Shown here: piece after piece, positions 11,432 through 60,940 of the stretch | Numbering within the stretch: the first letter of the stretch is position 1 | Layout: each line of letters opens with the position of its first letter | NCBI RefSeq assembly: GCF_900104525.1 | Contig: NZ_LT629711.1 | Location: forward strand, 2,790,001-2,854,000 | DNA length: 64,000 nt | From: Pedococcus dokdonensis | GTDB taxonomy: Bacteria; Actinomycetota; Actinomycetes; Actinomycetales; Dermatophilaceae | Direction of reading: 5' to 3' | Notes under the pieces: model-generated | The model's database searches: none | What the model saw: the letters and a program-made list of their open reading frames with translations, nothing else | Told to the model about the DNA's origin: nothing | Translations under genes and position numbers: made by a program

Positions 11432-11493
11432 GCCTCCAGTCTTTGAAGGGTTGACCACACCAGGGCGTGGTCGACCCTTCAAAGACTGGAGGC
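11432..11493. terminator. Long palindrome with 27-bp stem
   Basis: A left arm (11432-11458, starting GCCTCCAGTCTTTGAAGGG) pairs with a right arm (11467-11493) around an 8-nt loop; only one position is not Watson-Crick, and it is a G-T type pair. It sits immediately after the stop of the minus-strand gene at 11494 and before the dnaK control region, so it probably insulates dnaK from upstream transcription. The stem is far longer than a normal terminator and lacks a T-run. Confidence 0.7.
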
Positions 11494-12021: not shown

Positions 12022-12035
12022 GCGGCTCAGCCTCC

Positions 12036-12446
12036 CACTTCTGGCCAGGGGTGCGGCACGGCGGGGCGGTTCGTCCCCCCACACCCCGCACCGCTGGCCA
12101 GAAGTCGCCTGCCCTCACCACTTCTGGCCAGGGGTGCGGCACGGCGGGGCGGTTCGTCCCCCCACACCCAGCACGACTGGCCAGAAGTCGCCTGCTCTCA
12201 GCACTTCTGGCCAGGGGTGCGGCACGGCGGGGCCGTTCGTCCCCCCACACCCAGCACCACTGGCCAGAGGTCGCCCGGTCTCAGCACTTCTGGCCAGGGG
12301 TGCGGCACGGCGGGGCGATTCGTCCCCCCACACCCAGCACCACTGGCCAGAAGTCGCCTGCCCTCACCACTTCTGGCCAGGGGTGCGGCACGGCGGGGCC
12401 GTTCGTCCCCCCACACCCAGCACCACTGGCCAGAAGTCGCCTGGCG
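12036..12446. repeat. Five tandem 83-bp repeats, each able to form a hairpin
   Basis: Five units start (at ACTTCTGGCCAG) at 12037, 12120, 12203, 12286 and 12369, a strict 83-bp period. Each is bounded by a perfect 12-bp inverted repeat, ACTTCTGGCCAG and CTGGCCAGAAGT (one arm altered in unit 3), around a conserved G-run/C-run core. Units differ at only a few bases. The period is not a multiple of three and the frames carry no domain, so it is non-coding. It fills the whole spacer between the SGNH hydrolase stop and the gene at 12021. Confidence 0.92.
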
Positions 12447-14939: not shown

Positions 14940-15581
14940 GTGGACGACCGGCTCTTCGCGCGCACCGTCGCGGACCTGACCGCCCACGACCCCGACCTCG
15001 CCGCGCTGGTGGCGGCGCACGGCATACCTCCGCTGTGGTTGCGGCCACCCGGCTTTCCCAGCCTGGTGCTGTTCATCCTCGAGCAGCAGGTGTCACTGGC
15101 GTCCGCCGCAGCCGCCTACCGCAAGGTGCTCGAACGGCTTGGCGCGATGGAGCCGGCCGCGCTCCTGGCGGCCACCCCCGAGGAGCTGCGCGCGGACGGG
15201 GTGTCGCGCCAGAAGGACCGCTACCTGCGCGCGCTGGCGTCCGCGGTCGTGGGCGGCGAGCTCGACCTGCCCGGGCTGGCCGACCTGTCCGACGACGAGG
15301 TGCGGCGCGCGCTCACCGCGCTGCCGGGCATCGGGCGCTGGACCGCCGACGTCTACCTCCTCGCCTGCCTCGGACGACCCGATCTCTGGCCGGTCGGCGA
15401 CCGCGCCCTCCAGGTCGCCGCCGCCGAGGCCCTCGGCCTCGACGAGGTGCCCGACCAGGCCGGGCTGGAGCTGCTCGGCGAGCGTTGGCGACCGCACCGT
15501 TCGACGGCCTCGCGCCTGCTCTGGCACGGCTACCTCGTGCGCCGTGGCCGCACCGAGACGCCCTTGATCACCCTCGACTGA
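14940..15581 (+). CDS. DNA-3-methyladenine glycosylase II family (AlkA-like)
   Basis: The 213-residue protein has the HhH-GPD superfamily core: FILEQQVS (about 45-52), the helix-hairpin-helix LPGIGRWTADVYLLACLG (128-145) and the catalytic Asp in WPVGDRAL (about 154). It should remove alkylated purines such as 3-methyladenine from DNA. It lacks the N-terminal AlkA domain and the FeS cluster of Nth/MutY, so it is a minimal glycosylase. GTG 14940 has a leaderless-type -10. Confidence 0.9.
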   Translation: MDDRLFARTVADLTAHDPDLAALVAAHGIPPLWLRPPGFPSLVLFILEQQVSLASAAAAYRKVLERLGAMEPAALLAATPEELRADGVSRQKDRYLRALASAVVGGELDLPGLADLSDDEVRRALTALPGIGRWTADVYLLACLGRPDLWPVGDRALQVAAAEALGLDEVPDQAGLELLGERWRPHRSTASRLLWHGYLVRRGRTETPLITLD

Positions 15582-15590
15582 CTGGGCCGC

Positions 15591-15660
15591 GCAAAACGGC
15601 GATTGCGTGGACTTCCGCCCGGCAATTGCTGGGCGGACGGGGACGCAACTGCCGTATTGC
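15591..15660. repeat. Convergent-junction palindrome, copy A
   Basis: Outer arms GCAAAACGGCGATTGCGT (15591-15608) and the mirrored 15643-15660 enclose an inner palindrome TCCGCCCGGCAATTGC...GGGCGGA (15614-15637). It lies between convergent genes ending at 15581 (+) and 15680 (-). It has diverged more than copies B (38741) and C (59438). Likely a bidirectional terminator and/or small mobile palindromic element. Confidence 0.85.
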
Positions 15661-15679
15661 GGGGAAAGACCGGAGGGGG

Positions 15680-17773
15680 TCAGGGGGCCGTGAGCTCGCG
15701 GGCCAGGGCGGGTGGCATGTAGTCGTAGCGGACGAAGCTGCGGGTGAAGCTGCCGGTGCCGTGCGAGACCGACCGCAGGTCGACCGGGTAGCGAGCCAGC
15801 TCGTGAGCGGGGACCTCGGCGTGGATCACGGTGCGGCCGGCGACCTCGGCCGGCTCGGTGCCGTGCACCTGACCACGACGCCCTCGCAGGTCAGCCAGGA
15901 CCCCGCCGACGGCGTCGTCGCCGACCTCGATGTGCACCTCGTCGACCGGTTCGAGCATCGCCACCGTCGAGTCGTTGGCCGCCTCGCGCAAGGCCATCCC
16001 GGCGGCGGTCTGGAAGGCCATGTCCGAGGAGTCGACCGAGTGGGCCTTGCCGTCGACGAGCGTGATCCGCACGTCCACGACCGGGTAGCCGGCCAGCACC
16101 CCCTTCTCGAGCTGGTGCCGTGCGCCCTTCTCCACCGACGGGATGAAGTTGCGGGGCACTGCGCCACCCACGACCTTGTCGACGAACTCGATCCCGGCGC
16201 CACGCTCGAGCGGCTCGATCTCGAGGTGGCAGACCGCGTACTGGCCGTGCCCCCCGGACTGCTTCACGAGCCGGCCCTGCACCTTGGTCGGCCGCACGAA
16301 CGTCTCACGCAACGAGGTGCGGACCGGTTCGACCTCGACAGCCACGTGGTAGCGGGAGTCGAGCGTGCCGATCAGCTGGTCGACGTGCGCCGGACCCATG
16401 GCCCACAGCACCAGCTGGTGGGTCTCGGCGTTGTGCTCGAGGCGCATCGTCACGTCCTCGGCGACGAGGCGCTGGAGTGCGCTGGCGAGCTTGTCCTCGT
16501 CACCCTTGGACTTGGCGTGGATCGCCACCGGCAGCAGCGGGTTGGGCAGCAGCCAGGGCTCCACCAGGGCCGGCTTCTCCTTGCGGGACAGGGTGTCCGA
16601 GGTCTCCGCGCCCGCCAGCTTGGCGACCACGACCACGTCGCCGGCGATGCCCGCGGAGCGGGGTCGGGTCTCGTCACCGACCGGGGCGGCGAGCGGGCCG
16701 ATCCGTTCGTCGTCGGTGTCGTGGTCGGCGTGCTCGTCGACGAGGTGGCTCGCGAAGTGCTGGAGGTGACCCGAGATGTGCACCGGCTCGTCAGGTCGCA
16801 AGGTCCCCGAGAAGACCCGCACCAGCGACTGCCGACCGACGAACGGATCGGTCGTCGTGTGGACCACCTCGGCCACGAGCGGCCCGGCCGGGTCGCACGT
16901 CACGGCGCCGAAGTCGCCGCCCGCGGGGGTGTAGACGGTCGGCACCGCGGCGCCGACCGGTGAGGGAAAGCCCTTCTCGCACAGCTCCAGGAGCGCCTCG
17001 ACCCCGACGCCGTTCGGTGCGTGGGTGGGCAGGACCGGGAAGAACCGTGCGGTCGCGATCGCCAGTCGCAGGTCGGCGGAGACCGCCTCGGTGTCCACCT
17101 CCTCACCCCCCAGATAGCGCTCGAGGAGCCCTTCGTCCTCGGACTCCTCGATCACCGACTCGATCAGCTCGCCGCGCTGGGCGTCGATCAGCTCGCCCTC
17201 GTCGGTGGTGGGCTCGCGGTCGACGTCACCACCTCCCGACCGCTCGGTGACGGTGCGCCGCAACAGGTTCAACAGACCGGTGACCGTTCCGTCGACGATG
17301 AGTGGCAGCGCCAGCGGCTCCGCGTCGCCGAACGCGCGTTGGCACCCGTCAACGGTCGACTCGAAGTCCGCCCGCGCCTGCTCGAGCCGCGTGACGGCGA
17401 CCGCCCGCGGCATACCGAGCACATCGCACTCGCGCCACAGCAGCCGGGTCGGTTCGTCGACCCCGTCCGCGGCGGACACGACGAAGACCGCGGCGTCGGC
17501 GGCCCGCAGGCCGGCGCGCACCTCGCCCATGAAGTCGGGGTGGCCTGGGGTGTCGAGCAGGTTGAGGGTCACCTCCCCGCTCGGGATCGAGGCGGCGGTG
17601 AGCGACAGCGTCGCCGCGAGATCGCCTCCTTCACGAGCGCGGCGGCCCGGGATCCGGGCCGCCACGAGTTGCTCGAACAGTGCCGTCTTGCCGGCCCCGC
17701 TCGCTCCCACCAGGACCACGTTGCGGATCTGCTCCGGTGCGGAGGGCCCCGCGGCGTCGCTGACACGGTTCAT
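15680..17773 (-). CDS. Elongation factor G-like protein (EF-G2 type)
   Basis: The 697-residue translational GTPase has EF-G domain order: GTPase domain with P-loop GASGAGKT (23-30) and DTPGHPDFMGEV, then domain II, and domains IV-V ending in RSFVRYDYMPPALARELTAP. The G4 motif, normally NKxD, reads TRLEQA, so guanine recognition is altered. This pattern fits actinobacterial EF-G2 paralogues, which bind GTP but are reported not to replace EF-G in translocation. It stands alone rather than with str-operon genes. ATG 17773. Confidence 0.9.
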   Translation of the reverse strand: MNRVSDAAGPSAPEQIRNVVLVGASGAGKTALFEQLVAARIPGRRAREGGDLAATLSLTAASIPSGEVTLNLLDTPGHPDFMGEVRAGLRAADAAVFVVSAADGVDEPTRLLWRECDVLGMPRAVAVTRLEQARADFESTVDGCQRAFGDAEPLALPLIVDGTVTGLLNLLRRTVTERSGGGDVDREPTTDEGELIDAQRGELIESVIEESEDEGLLERYLGGEEVDTEAVSADLRLAIATARFFPVLPTHAPNGVGVEALLELCEKGFPSPVGAAVPTVYTPAGGDFGAVTCDPAGPLVAEVVHTTTDPFVGRQSLVRVFSGTLRPDEPVHISGHLQHFASHLVDEHADHDTDDERIGPLAAPVGDETRPRSAGIAGDVVVVAKLAGAETSDTLSRKEKPALVEPWLLPNPLLPVAIHAKSKGDEDKLASALQRLVAEDVTMRLEHNAETHQLVLWAMGPAHVDQLIGTLDSRYHVAVEVEPVRTSLRETFVRPTKVQGRLVKQSGGHGQYAVCHLEIEPLERGAGIEFVDKVVGGAVPRNFIPSVEKGARHQLEKGVLAGYPVVDVRITLVDGKAHSVDSSDMAFQTAAGMALREAANDSTVAMLEPVDEVHIEVGDDAVGGVLADLRGRRGQVHGTEPAEVAGRTVIHAEVPAHELARYPVDLRSVSHGTGSFTRSFVRYDYMPPALARELTAP

Positions 17774-36880: not shown

Positions 36881-37995
36881 GCGGGGACCTCCGGTCCGGT
36901 GGTGGTGTCGCTGAGCGGGGCGGGCGGTGCGACGTCGGTCTCGCGCGCGAGAGTCGCCAACGCCTCGAGCGTGGTGGCGGCGAGCGGTATGCCGTCGACG
37001 GCCAGCCGCTGCCGGTTGCGGTCCTCGAGCTCGCCGGGGACGAGGATCTCGTCGGCCCAGGCGGAGAGCTCGCCGCCGCGGGTCTGGTCGACGAGCGCCT
37101 CGACGCGGGCAGAGAAGTCCGCCCGGTCCGACACCGCCGCGACGTCGATCGTGATGAGGAAGTGGCCGGCGCCGCTGCGGCGGCTCGGGTCGTAGGGACC
37201 GGCGACGGCGTCGCCGAAGGCGCTGCCGGTGAGGACCCCGGCGAGGACGTCCATCATGAACGAGATGACGTAGCCCTTGGGGCCGGCCATCGGCAGGATC
37301 AGTCCGGCGATGGCCTCGGCGGGGTCGGTCGTCGGGGTGCCGTCGGCGGCGGCCGCCCAGCCGTCGGGCACCTGCTCGCCGCGTTCGGCCGCGAGGTAGA
37401 CCTTGCCGCGCGCGACCGCCGTGTTGGCGAGGTCCATGACCACCACGCCGTGGCGGCCTGCGGGAGCAGCGATGGACCACGGGTTGGTCCCGATCGCCTT
37501 GGCCCGCCCACCCCACGGAGCCATGGCGGGGCTGGCGTTGGTCACCAGCAGGGCGACACAGCCCGCCCCCGCGGCCTGGCGGGTGAAGTACGCGGCGGTG
37601 CCGAAGTGCCCTGAAGCCCGCACGGCCACCCCGCTGATCCCGTGGCTGCGGGCTCGCTCGATGCCGAGCTCGACGGCTCGCTGGGCCACGACCTGGCCGA
37701 CCCCGTGGTGACCGTCCAGCACCACGACGGCGCCTCCGTCACGGACGACCTCCACGGCCGTCACGGCCTCGGTCGCCCCGGAACGCAGGCGCGCGACGTA
37801 CCAGGGCAGTCGCAGGAGGCCGTGCGACGCGTGTCCCCAGAGCTCGGCCGTGACCAGCGTGTCGGCCAGCAGGGCCGCATCCGTCGCCGGCACGCCTTCG
37901 GCGACGAGCGCGTCCGTGGCGAACCGGGCCAGCTCCGCTGCTGCGAAGGGTCCATGGCGCGGATTCTCGTGCGCGGGACTCCCGGTCGGGTCCAC
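36877..37995 (-). CDS. Ldh_2 (malate/L-lactate/sulfolactate dehydrogenase) family oxidoreductase
   Basis: The 372-residue NAD(P)-dependent enzyme has family marks HASHGLLRLPWYVARLRSG, GHFGTAAYFTRQAA, NASPAMAPWGGRAKAIGTNP and MAGPKGYVISFMMDVLAGVL. Members oxidise malate, sulfolactate, ureidoglycolate or diketogulonate. It is first in the five-gene operon and divergent from the GntR regulator. GTG 37995 follows GAGGAGGAG; an in-frame ATG at 38076 would overlap the operator and is rejected. Confidence 0.9.
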   Translation of the reverse strand: MDPTGSPAHENPRHGPFAAAELARFATDALVAEGVPATDAALLADTLVTAELWGHASHGLLRLPWYVARLRSGATEAVTAVEVVRDGGAVVVLDGHHGVGQVVAQRAVELGIERARSHGISGVAVRASGHFGTAAYFTRQAAGAGCVALLVTNASPAMAPWGGRAKAIGTNPWSIAAPAGRHGVVVMDLANTAVARGKVYLAAERGEQVPDGWAAAADGTPTTDPAEAIAGLILPMAGPKGYVISFMMDVLAGVLTGSAFGDAVAGPYDPSRRSGAGHFLITIDVAAVSDRADFSARVEALVDQTRGGELSAWADEILVPGELEDRNRQRLAVDGIPLAATTLEALATLARETDVAPPAPLSDTTTGPEVPA

Positions 37996-38037
37996 TCGCT
38001 CCTCCTCCGTCGGCTGTGCAAGACTGGATGCAGAGAA

Positions 38038-38059
38038 GCATACTTGTATACAAGTATGC
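38038..38059. promoter_or_regulatory. Perfect 22-bp GntR-type operator
   Basis: GCATACTTGTA followed immediately by its exact inverse TACAAGTATGC forms a gapless palindrome. It lies 42 bp upstream of the Ldh_2 GTG and 15 bp upstream of the GntR ATG. The core TTGTATACAA fits FadR/FCD-subfamily operators. It probably controls both divergent transcripts. Confidence 0.85.
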
Positions 38060-38074
38060 AAGAAGGGAGGTCGC

Positions 38075-38740
38075 ATGGTGGACCGTCCGCGGCGCGCGTC
38101 GGGTGGTCAGCTCGTCTACACCGAGCTGCGCCGGCAGATCCTCGACCTCGAGCTCGCCCCGGGGCAGCGGCTGTTCGAGCCCGAGCTCGCGACCAGGCTG
38201 CAGGTGAGCCGGACCCCGCTGCGCGAGGCCCTGCGGCTGCTGCTCGCCGAGGACCTGCTGGACCAGCTGCCCACCGGGGGGATGGTGGTCCGTCCGCTGA
38301 GCGCCCGCGAGATCGAGGAGCTCTACACGGTGCGCGCCTCGCTCGAGGGGTTGCTGACGGCCGAGGCGGCGAGACGGGTCGACGACGCCGGCCTGGCCAC
38401 CCTGCGTGGGCTGGTCGAGCGCAACGCCGCCCTCGTCGACCTGCCCACCGATGCCATGAACGCCGGGCACGAGTTCCACCTCGCCATCGGCGAGCTCGCG
38501 GGGCACGAGTGGGCCTCCCGGCTGCACGCGCAGGTCGACGGGCAGATGGCTCGCTACCGAGCGTTCACCAACCAGACGCAGGAACGGCGCACCCTCGCCC
38601 TCGCGGAGCACCGGCAGATCCTCAAGGCGATCGAGGCCCGCGACCCCGACCGCGCGAGGACGCTCGCCGAGAGACACGTCCTCGCGGCCCGCGACACGGC
38701 CCTCGCCGCCATCGGCGACCGCCTCGACCCACCCGGCTGA
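38075..38740 (+). CDS. GntR-family regulator, FCD subfamily
   Basis: The 221-residue protein has an N-terminal winged helix (about 8-75: LVYTELRRQILDLELAPGQR, EPELATRLQVSRTPLREALR) and an all-helical FCD ligand domain with metal-site residues in DAMNAGHEFHLAIGELAG, ALAEHRQILKAI and AERHV. Such proteins bind organic acids. Its gene is divergent from the five-gene catabolic operon across a perfect palindrome, so it is almost certainly the local and self-regulator. ATG 38075 follows GGGAGG. Confidence 0.93.
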   Translation: MVDRPRRASGGQLVYTELRRQILDLELAPGQRLFEPELATRLQVSRTPLREALRLLLAEDLLDQLPTGGMVVRPLSAREIEELYTVRASLEGLLTAEAARRVDDAGLATLRGLVERNAALVDLPTDAMNAGHEFHLAIGELAGHEWASRLHAQVDGQMARYRAFTNQTQERRTLALAEHRQILKAIEARDPDRARTLAERHVLAARDTALAAIGDRLDPPG

Positions 38741-38820
38741 CCCCCGCAAAACGGCAGTTGCGTCGCCTTCCGCCCAGCAATTGCTGGGCGGAAGTGGCCG
38801 CAACTGCCGTTTTGCGGGGG
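38741..38820. repeat. Convergent-junction palindrome, copy B (perfect)
   Basis: The element occupies every base between the GntR stop (38740) and the response-regulator stop (38821). The outer 22-bp arms (starting CCCCCGCAAAACGGCAG) are exact inverses, as are the inner 14-bp arms CTTCCGCCCAGCAA and TTGCTGGGCGGAAG. It is the best-conserved of three copies (also 15591 and 59438). Confidence 0.93.
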
Positions 38821-39498
38821 TCAGCGCATCCGGTAGCGGCGCTCGGGACGGCCCGCGGCGCCGTAGCGCGGCCGCATCTCGGCCCTGCCCACCGACACAA
38901 GGTGCTCGAGGTAGCGCCGAGTGCTGCTGCGCGACAGCCCGGTCGACTCCGCGCACTCGGTCGCGGACAGGCCGTCCTCGTCCGCCGCCTCGAGCGCCCG
39001 GAGCACCAGCTCGATGGTCTCGGGGCTGATCCCCTTGGGCAGCCCACCCCCGGACCGCGACACCGCCCCCGCCCGGAACACCCGGTCGACGTCGTCCTGC
39101 CCCACCTCGGTGAGGTCGTCGAGCTCGGCCCGGTGCACGGCATACTCCCGCAGCCGCTGCTGGAGCGACTCGATCTCGAACGGCTTCACGAGGTAGTGGA
39201 ACACCCCGCCGCGCAGGGCGGTCCGCAACGTGTCGAGGTCGCGCGCGGCGCTGATGACGATGACGTCGAGGTCCTCGTTGCCGCCCTCACGCAGTCCTCG
39301 GAGCACCTCCAGCCCGGTCATGTCGGGCAGGTAGATGTCGAGCAGGACGAGGTCGGGGCGGGTGGCCTCGACCGCACGCAGCGCGTCGGTGCCGGTGCTC
39401 GCGATGCCCGCGACCTCGAAGCCCTCCTCGCGTGCCACGACGCTGGAGTGCAGCCGCGCCACCATGAAGTCGTCGTCGACGACGAGCACCGAGATCAC
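38821..39498 (-). CDS. CitB/DpiA-type response regulator
   Basis: The 225-residue protein has a receiver domain with the acidic pair in VLVVDDDFM, phospho-acceptor Asp in LVLLDIYLPDMTG (about 54) and Lys in HYLVKPFE, followed by a C-terminal helix-turn-helix ending GLSRSSTRRYLEHLVSVGRA. It is translated from GTG overlapping the kinase stop (GTGA). In this family the regulator activates transport or catabolism of di- and tricarboxylates, which fits the divergent transporter at 41285. Confidence 0.92.
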   Translation of the reverse strand: MISVLVVDDDFMVARLHSSVVAREEGFEVAGIASTGTDALRAVEATRPDLVLLDIYLPDMTGLEVLRGLREGGNEDLDVIVISAARDLDTLRTALRGGVFHYLVKPFEIESLQQRLREYAVHRAELDDLTEVGQDDVDRVFRAGAVSRSGGGLPKGISPETIELVLRALEAADEDGLSATECAESTGLSRSSTRRYLEHLVSVGRAEMRPRYGAAGRPERRYRMR

Positions 39499-58830: not shown

Positions 58831-59427
58831 ATGAGCGAGCAGCACGGCGACGCAGGGCAGGATCAGGGCGAGGCTGCGGGGGGCACGGACGGACAGCAGC
58901 GCGTCGTGGTCGTGACGCAGGACGGCATGGGGGTCGCCCCGCACTCCGAGAACGAGGACGGCCCCACCAACCCCGCCGACCTCGTCGAGCAGCCGGCCAA
59001 GGTGATGCGGATCGGCTCGATGATCAAGCAGCTGCTCGAGGAGGTGCGCAACGCACCCCTCGACGAGGCGGGGCGGGTGCGGCTCGCCGAGATCCACCGC
59101 CGGTCGATCAAGGAGCTCGAGGACGGCCTGGCCCCGGAGCTGATCGACGAGCTCGAGCGGATCGCCTTGCCGTTCAACGAGGACGTGGCTCCGACCGACG
59201 CCGAGCTGCGCATCGCGCAAGCGCAGCTGGTGGGCTGGCTGGAAGGCTTGTTCCACGGCATACAGACGGCGCTGTTCGCGCAGCAGATGGCGGCGCAGCA
59301 ACAGCTGCAGGGGATGCGGCGGGCCCTGCCTCCGGGTCACGCTCCCGAGGACGGTCCGGGCGTCGCCGGGCAGCCCGGGCTGCGACCCGACACCGGGGAC
59401 AGCGGCCCCACCGGCCAGTACCTCTGA
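58831..59427 (+). CDS. bpa: Bacterial proteasome activator Bpa (DUF2587)
   Basis: The 198-residue protein has an acidic disordered N-terminus, the four-helix Bpa core (KVMRIGSMIKQLLEEVRNAP, RLAEIHRRSIKELEDGLAPE, QLVGWLEGLFHGIQTALFAQ) and a flexible tail ending GQYL, the proteasome-docking C-terminus with the penultimate Tyr. Bpa forms a ring that opens the 20S proteasome for ATP-independent degradation of damaged or unfolded proteins. No prcBA genes are in this window. It indicates that the organism has a proteasome. Confidence 0.93.
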   Translation: MSEQHGDAGQDQGEAAGGTDGQQRVVVVTQDGMGVAPHSENEDGPTNPADLVEQPAKVMRIGSMIKQLLEEVRNAPLDEAGRVRLAEIHRRSIKELEDGLAPELIDELERIALPFNEDVAPTDAELRIAQAQLVGWLEGLFHGIQTALFAQQMAAQQQLQGMRRALPPGHAPEDGPGVAGQPGLRPDTGDSGPTGQYL

Positions 59428-59437
59428 CCCACGCCGC

Positions 59438-59507
59438 GCAACACGGCAGTTGCGTCCACTCCCGCCCGGCAACTGCTGGGCGGGAGTGGACGCAACTGCC
59501 GTATTGC
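59438..59507. repeat. Convergent-junction palindrome, copy C
   Basis: Arms of 30 bp at 59438-59467 (starting GCAACACGGCAGTTGCGTCC) and 59478-59507 pair with one mismatch around GGCAACTGCT. It lies between the convergent bpa (+, stop 59427) and MFS (-, stop 59564) genes, like copies A (15591) and B (38741), with the same sequence core. Confidence 0.92.
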
Positions 59508-59563
59508 CCGGCTAACCCTGGGGGCCCGCCGGACCATGATCAGGACGTATGCCGGGTGCTGGG

Positions 59564-60853
59564 TCAGGCCGGGTCGGCCCGCGCGGCGGCGTCGACCCGC
59601 GCGATCCGAGGCAGCGGCGAGAGCCAGGCGTAGGAGGCGGCCACCAGGCCGACGGCCACGATGGTCAGCATGGCCGGGCGGACGCCCACCTGGTCGGCGA
59701 GTGCCCCGGCAGCGAGCGCGCCGATGGTCCAGCCGAGGCCCCAGGAGAGCATCCGGCCCGCGGTGTTGACGCGGCTCAGGAGGCGCTCGGGGGTGACCTG
59801 CTGGCGGTAGTTGAGCGAGTTGATGATGACGAGCTGATAGGCCACGCCCCACCCGATCATGAACAGGACGGCGGCGACCCAGCTCGTCGACAGGGCGACC
59901 AGCACCCCGAAGCCCGCCGACACCGGCATCCACGCCAGGGTCAGCCGCGCGGCGGTGAAGCGGCGCAGCAGCCGGGGTGTCAGGGAGGCCGCGAGGATCC
60001 CACCGATGCCCCACGCGCTGAACACCAGGCCGAACCGCCAGCCCGACGTGCCGACCCGCAGCACCCGGTCGCACCACGGCACCGCGAGCGCCATGAAGCC
60101 GGCACCGGCGATCGACTGGAGCGCCCCGATGATCGAGTTCGAACGCACCCCGTGGTGCCGCCAGAGGAAGCCGACCCCCTCGCGGATGTCGGCGCCCACG
60201 GACGACCGCGCGCCCTCCGCATGCTCCCTCGGCACCGACAGCGCGCGGCCGATCGTGCGGACCAGCATCGCGGAGACCAGGAAGGTCAGTGCGTCGACCG
60301 CCAGCAGGTCGGCCGGGTGCACCACCGCGAGCGCCAGCCCGACCACCGCAGGGACCGTGAGGTCGAGGATGCCGCCCACACCCCACACCGCCGCGTTGGC
60401 GTCACCGACCCGGTCGCGTCCGACGAGCACCGGCAGCGCCCCGAAGTTCGCGCCGTCGAAGAAGGTGAAGAGCGACTGGGCGACGAACCCGGCGACCAGC
60501 ACGTGCGGCACGGTCAGCCCGCCCCACCACCACGCGACCGGCACCGACCCGATCACGACCACGTTCGCGAAGTCGGCGGCCACCATCACCCGCTTGCGGT
60601 CCAGCCGGTCGCCGACCGCACCGGAGAAGAGGCCGAAGAGCAGGTAGGGCAATGCCTCGAGGGTCGTCGTCAGTGCCGTGAGGGTGGTCGAGCCGGTGAG
60701 CCGGTAGACCAGCACCGGCATCGCCACGGCGGTGACGAGCGAGCCGAACAGGCTGGCCATCCGCGCGACCCAGTAGCGCCGGAAGTCGCGGTCGTCGCGG
60801 AGCCGGGCAGGCGGCACACCCGCCTCGCCCACGACGCTGCCCCGCTCACCCAC
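59564..60853 (-). CDS. MFS transporter, EntS/MFS_3-like
   Basis: A 429-residue, 12-segment major facilitator protein with the loop 2-3 motif GAVGDRLDRKRVMVAADF. The halves begin DDRDFRRYWVARMASLFGSL and HHGVRSNSIIGALQSIAGAG. Resembles EntS-type siderophore or drug exporters, but no biosynthetic genes are adjacent. GTG 60853 lies 7 nt after a -10-like CACACT, which supports this start over a longer frame. Confidence 0.88.
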   Translation of the reverse strand: MGERGSVVGEAGVPPARLRDDRDFRRYWVARMASLFGSLVTAVAMPVLVYRLTGSTTLTALTTTLEALPYLLFGLFSGAVGDRLDRKRVMVAADFANVVVIGSVPVAWWWGGLTVPHVLVAGFVAQSLFTFFDGANFGALPVLVGRDRVGDANAAVWGVGGILDLTVPAVVGLALAVVHPADLLAVDALTFLVSAMLVRTIGRALSVPREHAEGARSSVGADIREGVGFLWRHHGVRSNSIIGALQSIAGAGFMALAVPWCDRVLRVGTSGWRFGLVFSAWGIGGILAASLTPRLLRRFTAARLTLAWMPVSAGFGVLVALSTSWVAAVLFMIGWGVAYQLVIINSLNYRQQVTPERLLSRVNTAGRMLSWGLGWTIGALAAGALADQVGVRPAMLTIVAVGLVAASYAWLSPLPRIARVDAAARADPA

Positions 60854-60860
60854 GCCCCCG

Positions 60861-60866
60861 AGTGTG
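60861..60866 (-). promoter_or_regulatory. -10 box for leaderless MFS mRNA
   Basis: CACACT on the minus strand ends 7 nt before GTG 60853. Confidence 0.4.
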
Positions 60867-60940
60867 CAGGGTGAACCGCACTTCACCTCAACCGGGGCGG
60901 CCGCGCGGAGAAAGCGGGGGCGGGTGTCGGCCCGGGCGGG

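What the first reader, a model, noticed from the sequence alone, without database searches (positions are those of the whole stretch)
38741..38820. Family of about 70-80-bp palindromes exactly at convergent gene ends (copies at 15591, 38741, 59438)
Three elements share GCAAAACGGCAGTTGCG...GCCCAGCAATTGCTGGGC and mirror arms, and each sits between two converging genes. Copy B fills the entire intergenic space. Sequence conservation beyond what termination needs suggests a dispersed element (REP- or MITE-like) recruited or selected as a bidirectional terminator, or a protein-binding site.
Basis: seen in the sequence. Interest (0 to 1): 0.8.

Follow-up and report, generated by a model that had tools for sequence, protein, structure and literature searches.

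The report
Palindromes tied to an AbiEi-type nuclease
Three near-identical hairpin sequences between genes in this soil actinobacterium belong to a scattered repeat family that also brackets one gene for a probable DNA-cutting enzyme, an arrangement that resembles the REP repeats and transposases of other bacteria but with an unrelated enzyme.

Summary
Window copies A (15591-15660), B (38746-38815) and C (59438-59507) belong to a gap-free 70-bp palindrome family with 19 copies found in the 3.94-Mb genome. It is enriched at convergent gene ends (9 of 19 copies) but not confined to them. Relatives keep the same junctions without it or with another palindrome, so these look like insertions, not conserved terminators.

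The new point: two of the 19 copies bracket one gene, an AbiEi-type winged-helix protein fused to a Vsr/I-Bth0305I-like nuclease domain. Across Actinomycetes, 46 of 53 homologous loci examined are bracketed by matching elements, mostly inverted and lineage-specific; 0 of 57 control genes are. In the genus, all 7 genomes with the cognate nuclease clade hold this palindrome type; of the 4 without it, one (G008) keeps a few diverged copies. At one shared locus the flanking pair has diverged between species yet stays matched left to right. The layout is that of REPIN/RAYT systems, but no Y1 transposase was detected in this genome; a PD-(D/E)XK-like nuclease holds that place.

Mobilisation by the nuclease is inferred, not shown; termination is plausible and untested. 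Ten searches of an open-access library found no earlier description.

The parts
15590..15661 (.). Copy A: imperfect palindrome CGCAA..TTGCG (70-bp core 15591-15660), between genes ending at 15581 (+) and 15680 (-)
38741..38820 (.). Copy B: 80-bp palindrome (core 38746-38815; 17-nt arms 38746-38762 and 38799-38815; 36-bp inner part) filling the gap between converging genes
59433..59512 (.). Copy C: 80-bp palindrome (core 59438-59507), between genes ending at 59427 (+) and 59564 (-)
14940..15581 (+). HhH-GPD DNA-repair protein, left neighbour of copy A
15680..17773 (-). EF-G-like GTPase, right neighbour of copy A
37850..38740 (+). GntR/FCD regulator, left neighbour of copy B (start uncertain)
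38821..39498 (-). Response regulator, right neighbour of copy B
58831..59427 (+). Bacterial proteasome activator, left neighbour of copy C
59564..60886 (-). MFS transporter, right neighbour of copy C (start uncertain)
12031..12443 (.). Five-copy tandem array (period 83) with the 12-nt arm motif and 58-59-base spacing of the elements that bracket a third nuclease homologue of this genome (G000:2675607). Likely a second palindrome family; only the left of the two bracketing elements scores above the null against the array (19.5, null maximum 14.0; the right one 13.0)
   Evidence: spacing partly counted by hand

Best explanation
The palindromes are short, non-coding, probably mobile repeats tied to a chromosomal nuclease gene: a REPIN/RAYT-like arrangement with an unrelated enzyme. 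SHOWN: the repeats are one gap-free family; two copies bracket an AbiEi-winged-helix + Vsr/I-Bth0305I-like nuclease gene; homologues across Actinomycetes are bracketed in the same way, each lineage by its own element; palindrome type and nuclease clade largely go together in the genus; sites are vacant or differently filled in relatives; flanking pairs at one locus diverge between species while staying matched to each other. INFERRED: the winged-helix domain recognises the conserved arms; the nuclease domain cuts DNA at or near the palindrome (as duplex, cruciform or lagging-strand hairpin); repair or copying of the cut spreads palindromes, mainly tolerated just after stop codons; there they can act as bidirectional terminators and take the place of an earlier terminator hairpin.
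For: 19 copies, each with best-strand E of 2e-12 or better, next hit E 3.5. All 19 align over 70 bp without an indel, with 17-nt arms nearly invariant although inner bases often do not pair; 28 both-side changes against at most 10 in slid controls. The pair at 3768696/3769862 brackets one gene. 22 of 25 genus loci (L218 dropped as a piece of the L204 gene) and 24 of 28 loci outside the genus have flanks that match at score 22 or more; 0 of 57 control genes do, highest 15.5. Orientation: 35 inverted, 11 direct. The clade-I pattern occurs in the same 7 of 11 genomes that carry a clade-I nuclease (Fisher P 0.003). The hemB/YceI site and a second locus are each without the nuclease in other species. 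Left-right flank identity 0.82-0.93 within species against 0.57-0.77 between species at one locus, except G007/G010 at 0.87. Model pLDDT 83.6; PDB fold hits AbiEi 6y8q and I-Bth0305I 3r3p.
Against: No movement was observed. No target-site duplication. The enzyme class is a nuclease, not a transposase; it could be cargo. Nuclease loci are largely syntenic within the genus, so the gene itself moves rarely. GC of the gene (72.5%) is ordinary. 7 of 53 loci lack a bracket, several positives are modest (23.5-29), and many loci are orthologues of one another. The co-occurrence test is partly circular: the pattern was written from the flanking elements, and in G003 and G006 it matched flanking copies only (solo copies there come). 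G008, which lacks a clade-I nuclease, has one exact match to the arm pattern and 76-79% BLAST relics; counted that way P is about 0.02 (my arithmetic). Family 2: G005 and G008 hold 2-3 copies without a family-2 nuclease found. Only 26 of 45 solo copies are closer to their own genome's flanking pair than to another genome's. Two of five shuffle measures show no excess.
Confidence: 0.68

Rival explanations
1. Ordinary conserved bidirectional terminators: the shared sequence is a terminator consensus kept at convergent genes.
For: Very stable hairpins on both strands; 30 of 59 copies at convergent junctions; copy B ends at both stop codons.
Against: The same gene pair lacks the element in G005, G006 and G008 at B; another palindrome fills junction A in G008 and G005; 27 of 59 copies are co-directional and 2 divergent; sequence is conserved beyond pairing and tracks the nuclease clade.
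Confidence: 0.1
2. MITE-type repeats moved by some other transposase; the nuclease is cargo that happened to be captured between two copies.
For: Nucleases do not normally transpose DNA (recalled); no target-site duplication was found to settle the chemistry; some genomes hold copies without the cognate nuclease.
Against: Members of the same gene family are bracketed in 46 of 53 loci by different element sequences, 0 of 57 control genes are; palindrome type largely follows nuclease clade.
Confidence: 0.16
3. Operator sites of the AbiEi-type protein: it only binds palindromes (autoregulation and a regulon), with no mobility.
For: AbiEi antitoxins regulate their own promoters (recalled); fixed arm spacing in all 19 copies suits a bound protein.
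Against: 2 of 59 copies lie in divergent promoter regions, most at gene 3' ends; a copy also lies 3' of the nuclease gene; sites differ between orthologous junctions.
Confidence: 0.06

Closest known systems
REPIN/RAYT systems, including 'TIRtrons' (PMC3116915, abstract and passages; PMC3733652, passages)
   Same: Dispersed extragenic palindromes made of two inverted conserved arms with a spacer; a chromosomal gene flanked by the same repeats or by long inverted repeats; repeat type goes with gene clade; gene mostly vertical within a genus.
   Different: No Y1 (HUH) transposase match in the genome, no GTAG head; enzyme is AbiEi winged helix + Vsr-like nuclease domain; 70-bp palindromes found in 19 copies, where REPs usually exceed 100 per genome (PMC2817692, abstract in the listing).
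Type IV toxin-antitoxin AbiE (AbiEi antitoxin)
   Same: N-terminal part matches AbiEi_4 in 15 of 18 members, AbiEi models of PADLOC in up to 17 of 18 and structure 6y8q by fold.
   Different: Fused to a nuclease domain and bracketed by repeats; I did not test for an AbiEii partner gene.
EDxHD/Vsr-like homing endonuclease I-Bth0305I
   Same: C-terminal domain fold (3r3p, TM-score 0.73 by target length, E 2e-3).
   Different: Here the gene is flanked by its own palindromes with dispersed copies elsewhere; I-Bth0305I is an intron-type homing enzyme (recalled). By sequence profile no nuclease of the PDB is matched.
MITEs
   Same: Short, non-coding, dispersed, inverted arms.
   Different: No target-site duplication; no partner DDE element was looked for beyond the bracketed gene; each unit is a single palindrome like one flank of the gene.

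Membership tests
REP/RAYT | Y1 (HUH) tyrosine transposase related to IS200/IS605 | tested here: not met
   PF01797: 0 matches in own genome at E 0.001, while 5 of 14 control genomes ring; partner is a nuclease-like gene
REP/RAYT | Partner gene flanked by the same repeat type that is dispersed in the genome | tested here: met
   family 1; family 2; genus clade II
REP/RAYT | Repeats organised as inverted pairs with spacer (REPIN) | tested here: met
   17-nt arms, 36-bp spacer, 19 of 19 copies
REP/RAYT | GTAG (or CGTC) tag at one end of the REP | tested here: not met
   By eye: elements begin and end CGCAA/TTGCG; a CGTC lies just inside the arm in most copies, not at an end
Intrinsic terminator | Stable hairpin followed by a U-tract | tested here: inconclusive
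   Hairpin met; no T-run follows the three copies by eye; actinobacterial terminators may lack it (recalled)
Intrinsic terminator | Transcript ends at the element | not testable with these tools
   Needs RNA 3'-end data
MITE | Target-site duplication | tested here: not met
   47 copies, observed mean longest repeat 0.72 against 0.80 shuffled, 366 of 500 shuffles at least as high
Vsr/EDxHD-type endonuclease fold | Fold of the catalytic domain | tested here: met
   3r3p hit, TMt 0.73, probability 1.00, E 2e-3, on a predicted model
Vsr/EDxHD-type endonuclease fold | Exact EDxHD catalytic motif | tested here: inconclusive
   Invariant E, D, E-x-D-G, K and R columns in 18 members, no invariant H; not superposed residue by residue
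AbiE type IV toxin-antitoxin | Adjacent AbiEii nucleotidyltransferase toxin | not tested
   Neighbours of the own-genome gene look HemB- and YceI-like by eye; no family search was run on them

The most novel reading that the evidence does not exclude
A class of bacterial mobile repeats, common in Actinomycetes, in which a PD-(D/E)XK-type nuclease with an AbiEi-type DNA-binding domain, not a transposase, recognises and multiplies palindromes: an independent invention of the REPIN/RAYT way of life, many lineages each with a private palindrome, replacing terminators at gene ends.
Probability: 0.5. Interest if true: 0.9.

Novelty: new variant of a known kind. Interest (0 to 1): 0.8.

Why it matters
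REPIN/RAYT pairs rest on one transposase family. A second, unrelated enzyme family with the same genomic layout would show that dispersed bacterial palindromes can be sustained by a nuclease, would give a candidate function to a common and unexplained actinobacterial gene family (homologue in 106 of 148 Actinomycetes genomes searched), and would explain palindromes that differ between close relatives at the same gene junction.

Tried and rejected
Rejected: vertically conserved terminator as the sole reading (vacant or other-filled orthologous junctions); RAYT (Y1_Tnp not found); target-site duplication (none). Carriage on plasmids or phages: no tblastn match with the second nuclease of this genome at E 1e-15 and 1e-8; only that one protein was tried. 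Among 98 relatives the family-1 arm pattern was found in 5, all of this genus.

One search picked the wrong strand for several loci; corrected, where A1 holds 18 of the 26 genus loci (L198, L201, L202, L204, L205, L216, L218 and L219 left out, three of them for a stop in the matched stretch). In one search five contig-end loci had wrong coordinates; re-measured (4 of 5 positive; L302 at 21.5 not counted; L288 and L299 have short right flanks). Flanks compared were 300 bp in the genus and control sets and 450 bp outside the genus. Two further loci looked at later, L387 and L388, also have matching inverted flanks (30.5 and 30.0) and are not in the 53.

Dropped rows: a 14-bp hit at 509648 (E 3.49); L218 (piece of the L204 gene); 1 of 13 solo family-2 places (2145364) was not fetched for the junction count; G003:2000308, the G006 solos and G008 relics were not in the junction count. 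The hemB/YceI interval of G001, G006, G007 and G010, where the two genes lie 2 kb or more apart, was not examined.

Literature: 10 searches of the open-access library. DUF559+palindrom gave 2 papers and one search gave 2, judged unrelated from the listings; searches gave none; AbiEi+terminal inverted repeats gave one paper, whose AbiEi passages only list toxin-antitoxin genes. MTES_1575 was seen as a listing. One search held 247 papers, 15 listed; two of these were opened. Subscription papers and preprints were not searched.

Change after re-check: confidence lowered from 0.70 to 0.68 because the co-occurrence test is partly circular and G008 is an exception under the pattern.

Full report
OBSERVATION. 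The three palindromes are present at the stated places and far exceed chance. In the whole genome (G000, 3,942,064 bases, one contig) BLAST finds 19 places, each with best-strand E of 2e-12 or better; the next hit is a 14-bp match at E 3.5. More diverged copies were not sought with a profile. All 19 align over 70 bp without an indel: GCAANACGGCRGTTGCG, 36 inner bases, CGCAACYGCCGTNTTGC as consensus. Pair counting gives 89% of cells paired, 28 both-side changes and covariation score 0.130, against at most 10 changes and 0.058 in slid controls; in the shuffle control three of five measures stand out (1, 0 and 0 of 500) and two do not (218 and 217 of 500). The outer arms are nearly invariant, while inner positions 18-24 often do not pair, so both structure and sequence are kept.

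WHERE THE COPIES SIT. By my own codon-usage gene caller, 9 of the 19 copies lie between converging genes, 8 between co-directional and 2 between divergent genes. Adding 28 clade-I copies of five related genomes and 12 of 13 solo copies of a second family in this genome gives 30 convergent, 27 co-directional and 2 divergent of 59. Background is 31, 103 and 27 of 161 junctions (window plus six loci of G008, G005, G006; binomial P 5e-8 for convergent). The copies are not independent and gene calls are approximate. Of the 27 co-directional copies, 23 lie nearer the upstream gene's 3' end (one of them, beside the nuclease gene, uncertain because its start is unknown), 1 is a tie and 3 are nearer the downstream start. 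The element favours gene 3' ends; it is not restricted to convergent ends.

INSERTIONS RATHER THAN ANCIENT TERMINATORS. At copy B the same gene pair is present without a palindrome of this family in G008, G005 and G006; G008 has a 10-base resemblance (GCAAAACGGC) in its short spacer that I cannot interpret. At copy A, G008 and G005 carry a different palindrome in the same gap; at copy C, G005 has none, G006 a cousin palindrome, and in G006 and G008 another gene follows before the transporter (partly by eye). At the hemB/YceI junction own and G003 carry the nuclease with two palindromes, G002 a solo palindrome of its own nuclease's type, G004 one of the type bracketing a G004 nuclease (L220), and G004, G005, G008 and G009 show a GC-rich terminator-like hairpin, by eye, that own, G003 and G002 lack in the printed sequence.

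THE PARTNER GENE. The only two copies close together, 3768696 and 3769862, bracket one gene. Its product matches AbiEi_4 (E 4e-7) and, below the curated cut-offs, DUF559 and MTES_1575; over 18 relatives, AbiEi_4 matches 15 and DUF559 7 at E 0.01. NCBIfam has no model for it. Conserved E, D, E-x-D-G, K and R columns persist. The model (18 sequences, pLDDT 83.6, pTM 0.77, residues 1-58 of low confidence) matches AbiEi antitoxin 6y8q (E 5e-5) and the catalytic domain of homing endonuclease I-Bth0305I 3r3p (E 2e-3, TM-score 0.73 by target); R2 and TnsA endonucleases appear only at E above 0.1. By sequence profile the PDB gives only AbiE-type antitoxins at E 0.17. Y1_Tnp gives no match in the genome.

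GENERALITY. Of 25 homologous loci in 11 genus genomes, 22 have left and right flanks that match each other (score 22 or more). Of 28 loci outside the genus, 24 do. None of 57 control genes of similar size does, highest score 15.5. Cross-locus comparisons have medians 11 (600 pairs) and 12 (756 pairs), with high values among orthologues and, mis-placed contig-end loci. Many positives are orthologues of one another, and the weakest score 23.5-29. Orientation is inverted in 35 and direct in 11 of the 46, with small margins where the element is itself palindromic. The homologue profile matches 106 of 148 Actinomycetes genomes at E 1e-15. This genome has at least three such genes: family 1; family 2 (15 places) bracketing the gene at 86297; and a third at 2675607 with a CACTTCTGGCCA-type element.

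COGNATE PAIRING AND CONCERTED CHANGE. A clade-I pattern (GCAANRCGGNNGTYG, 25-55 bases, inverse) occurs in the same 7 of 11 genomes that carry a clade-I nuclease at 55% identity or more, and in none of the other 4 (P 0.003). The pattern was written from flanking elements, and in G003 and G006 it matched flanking copies only, so the test is partly circular; solo copies in those two come. G008, without a clade-I nuclease, has one exact match to the arm pattern and diverged BLAST relics; counted as a holder, P is about 0.02 (my arithmetic, C(4,3)/C(11,3)). In five species the gene sits at one syntenic locus. There the left and right copies are 0.82-0.93 identical within a species but 0.57-0.77 between species, except the pair G007/G010 at 0.87. 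Over all clade-I elements compared, mean identity is 0.73-0.93 within genomes and 0.52-0.81 between, the highest between-genome values being G000/G003 0.81, G007/G010 0.76 and G006/G002 0.75. Solo copies are closer to their own genome's flanking pair in 26 of 45 cases: 8 of 8 in G002, 6 of 8 in G001, 4 of 6 in G007, 7 of 17 in G000, 1 of 2 in G003, 0 of 4 in G010, the last four groups having a sister genome with the same subtype. The second locus lacks the nuclease in G000, G003, G004, G005, G008 and G009; in G005 and G008 another gene, regulator-like by eye, lies there. Family 2 has 2-3 copies in G005 and G008, where no family-2 nuclease was found.

MECHANISM (inferred). The winged helix binds the arms, the nuclease domain cuts at or near the palindrome, and repair or replication copies it elsewhere; sites just past stop codons survive selection, and hairpins there can serve as terminators. 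No target-site duplication was found in 47 copies, so the chemistry remains open. I put about 0.85 on 'palindromes and nuclease form one system' and about 0.55 on 'the nuclease spreads the palindromes'.

COMPARISON. The layout is that of REPIN/RAYT and TIRtrons as described in PMC3116915 (abstract and passages) and PMC3733652 (passages), but the defining Y1 transposase was not found, so it is not filed as a member. Ten searches of an open-access library found no earlier description; subscription papers and preprints were not searched.

TAXON. 

Noticed in passing
window 12031-12443: Five-copy tandem array (period 83, 93% match) directly downstream of a GDSL-lipase gene; its units carry the CACTTCTGGCCA..TGGCCAGAAGT arms and 58-59-base spacing of the elements that bracket a third nuclease homologue (G000:2675607), whose left element looks duplicated with period 83.
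   Followed up: partly
window 11432-11493: Near-perfect inverted repeat with 30-bp arms (93% complementary, 2-nt loop); possible terminator or another palindrome family.
   Followed up: no
L024 3642-3711 (G000 about 3011574): A further element with the third-family arms and similar spacing, about 600 bp from a family-1 copy.
   Followed up: no
L260 and L261, junction orthologous to copy A: G008 and G005 share another palindrome (TGTTGGAAG..CTTCCAACA) in the same gap; its partner gene, if any, is unknown.
   Followed up: no
L356 (G000:1823935-1823989): A family-2 palindrome lies beside a CCTTTGCTAGCAAAGG palindrome, by eye the same pair of motifs as in the elements that bracket the second nuclease (L212).
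   Followed up: partly
L371 (G008, junction at the second locus): Two direct copies of CCCCGAGAAAGTCGGCCAATTGGCCGG near each other; possibly one more small palindrome family.
   Followed up: no
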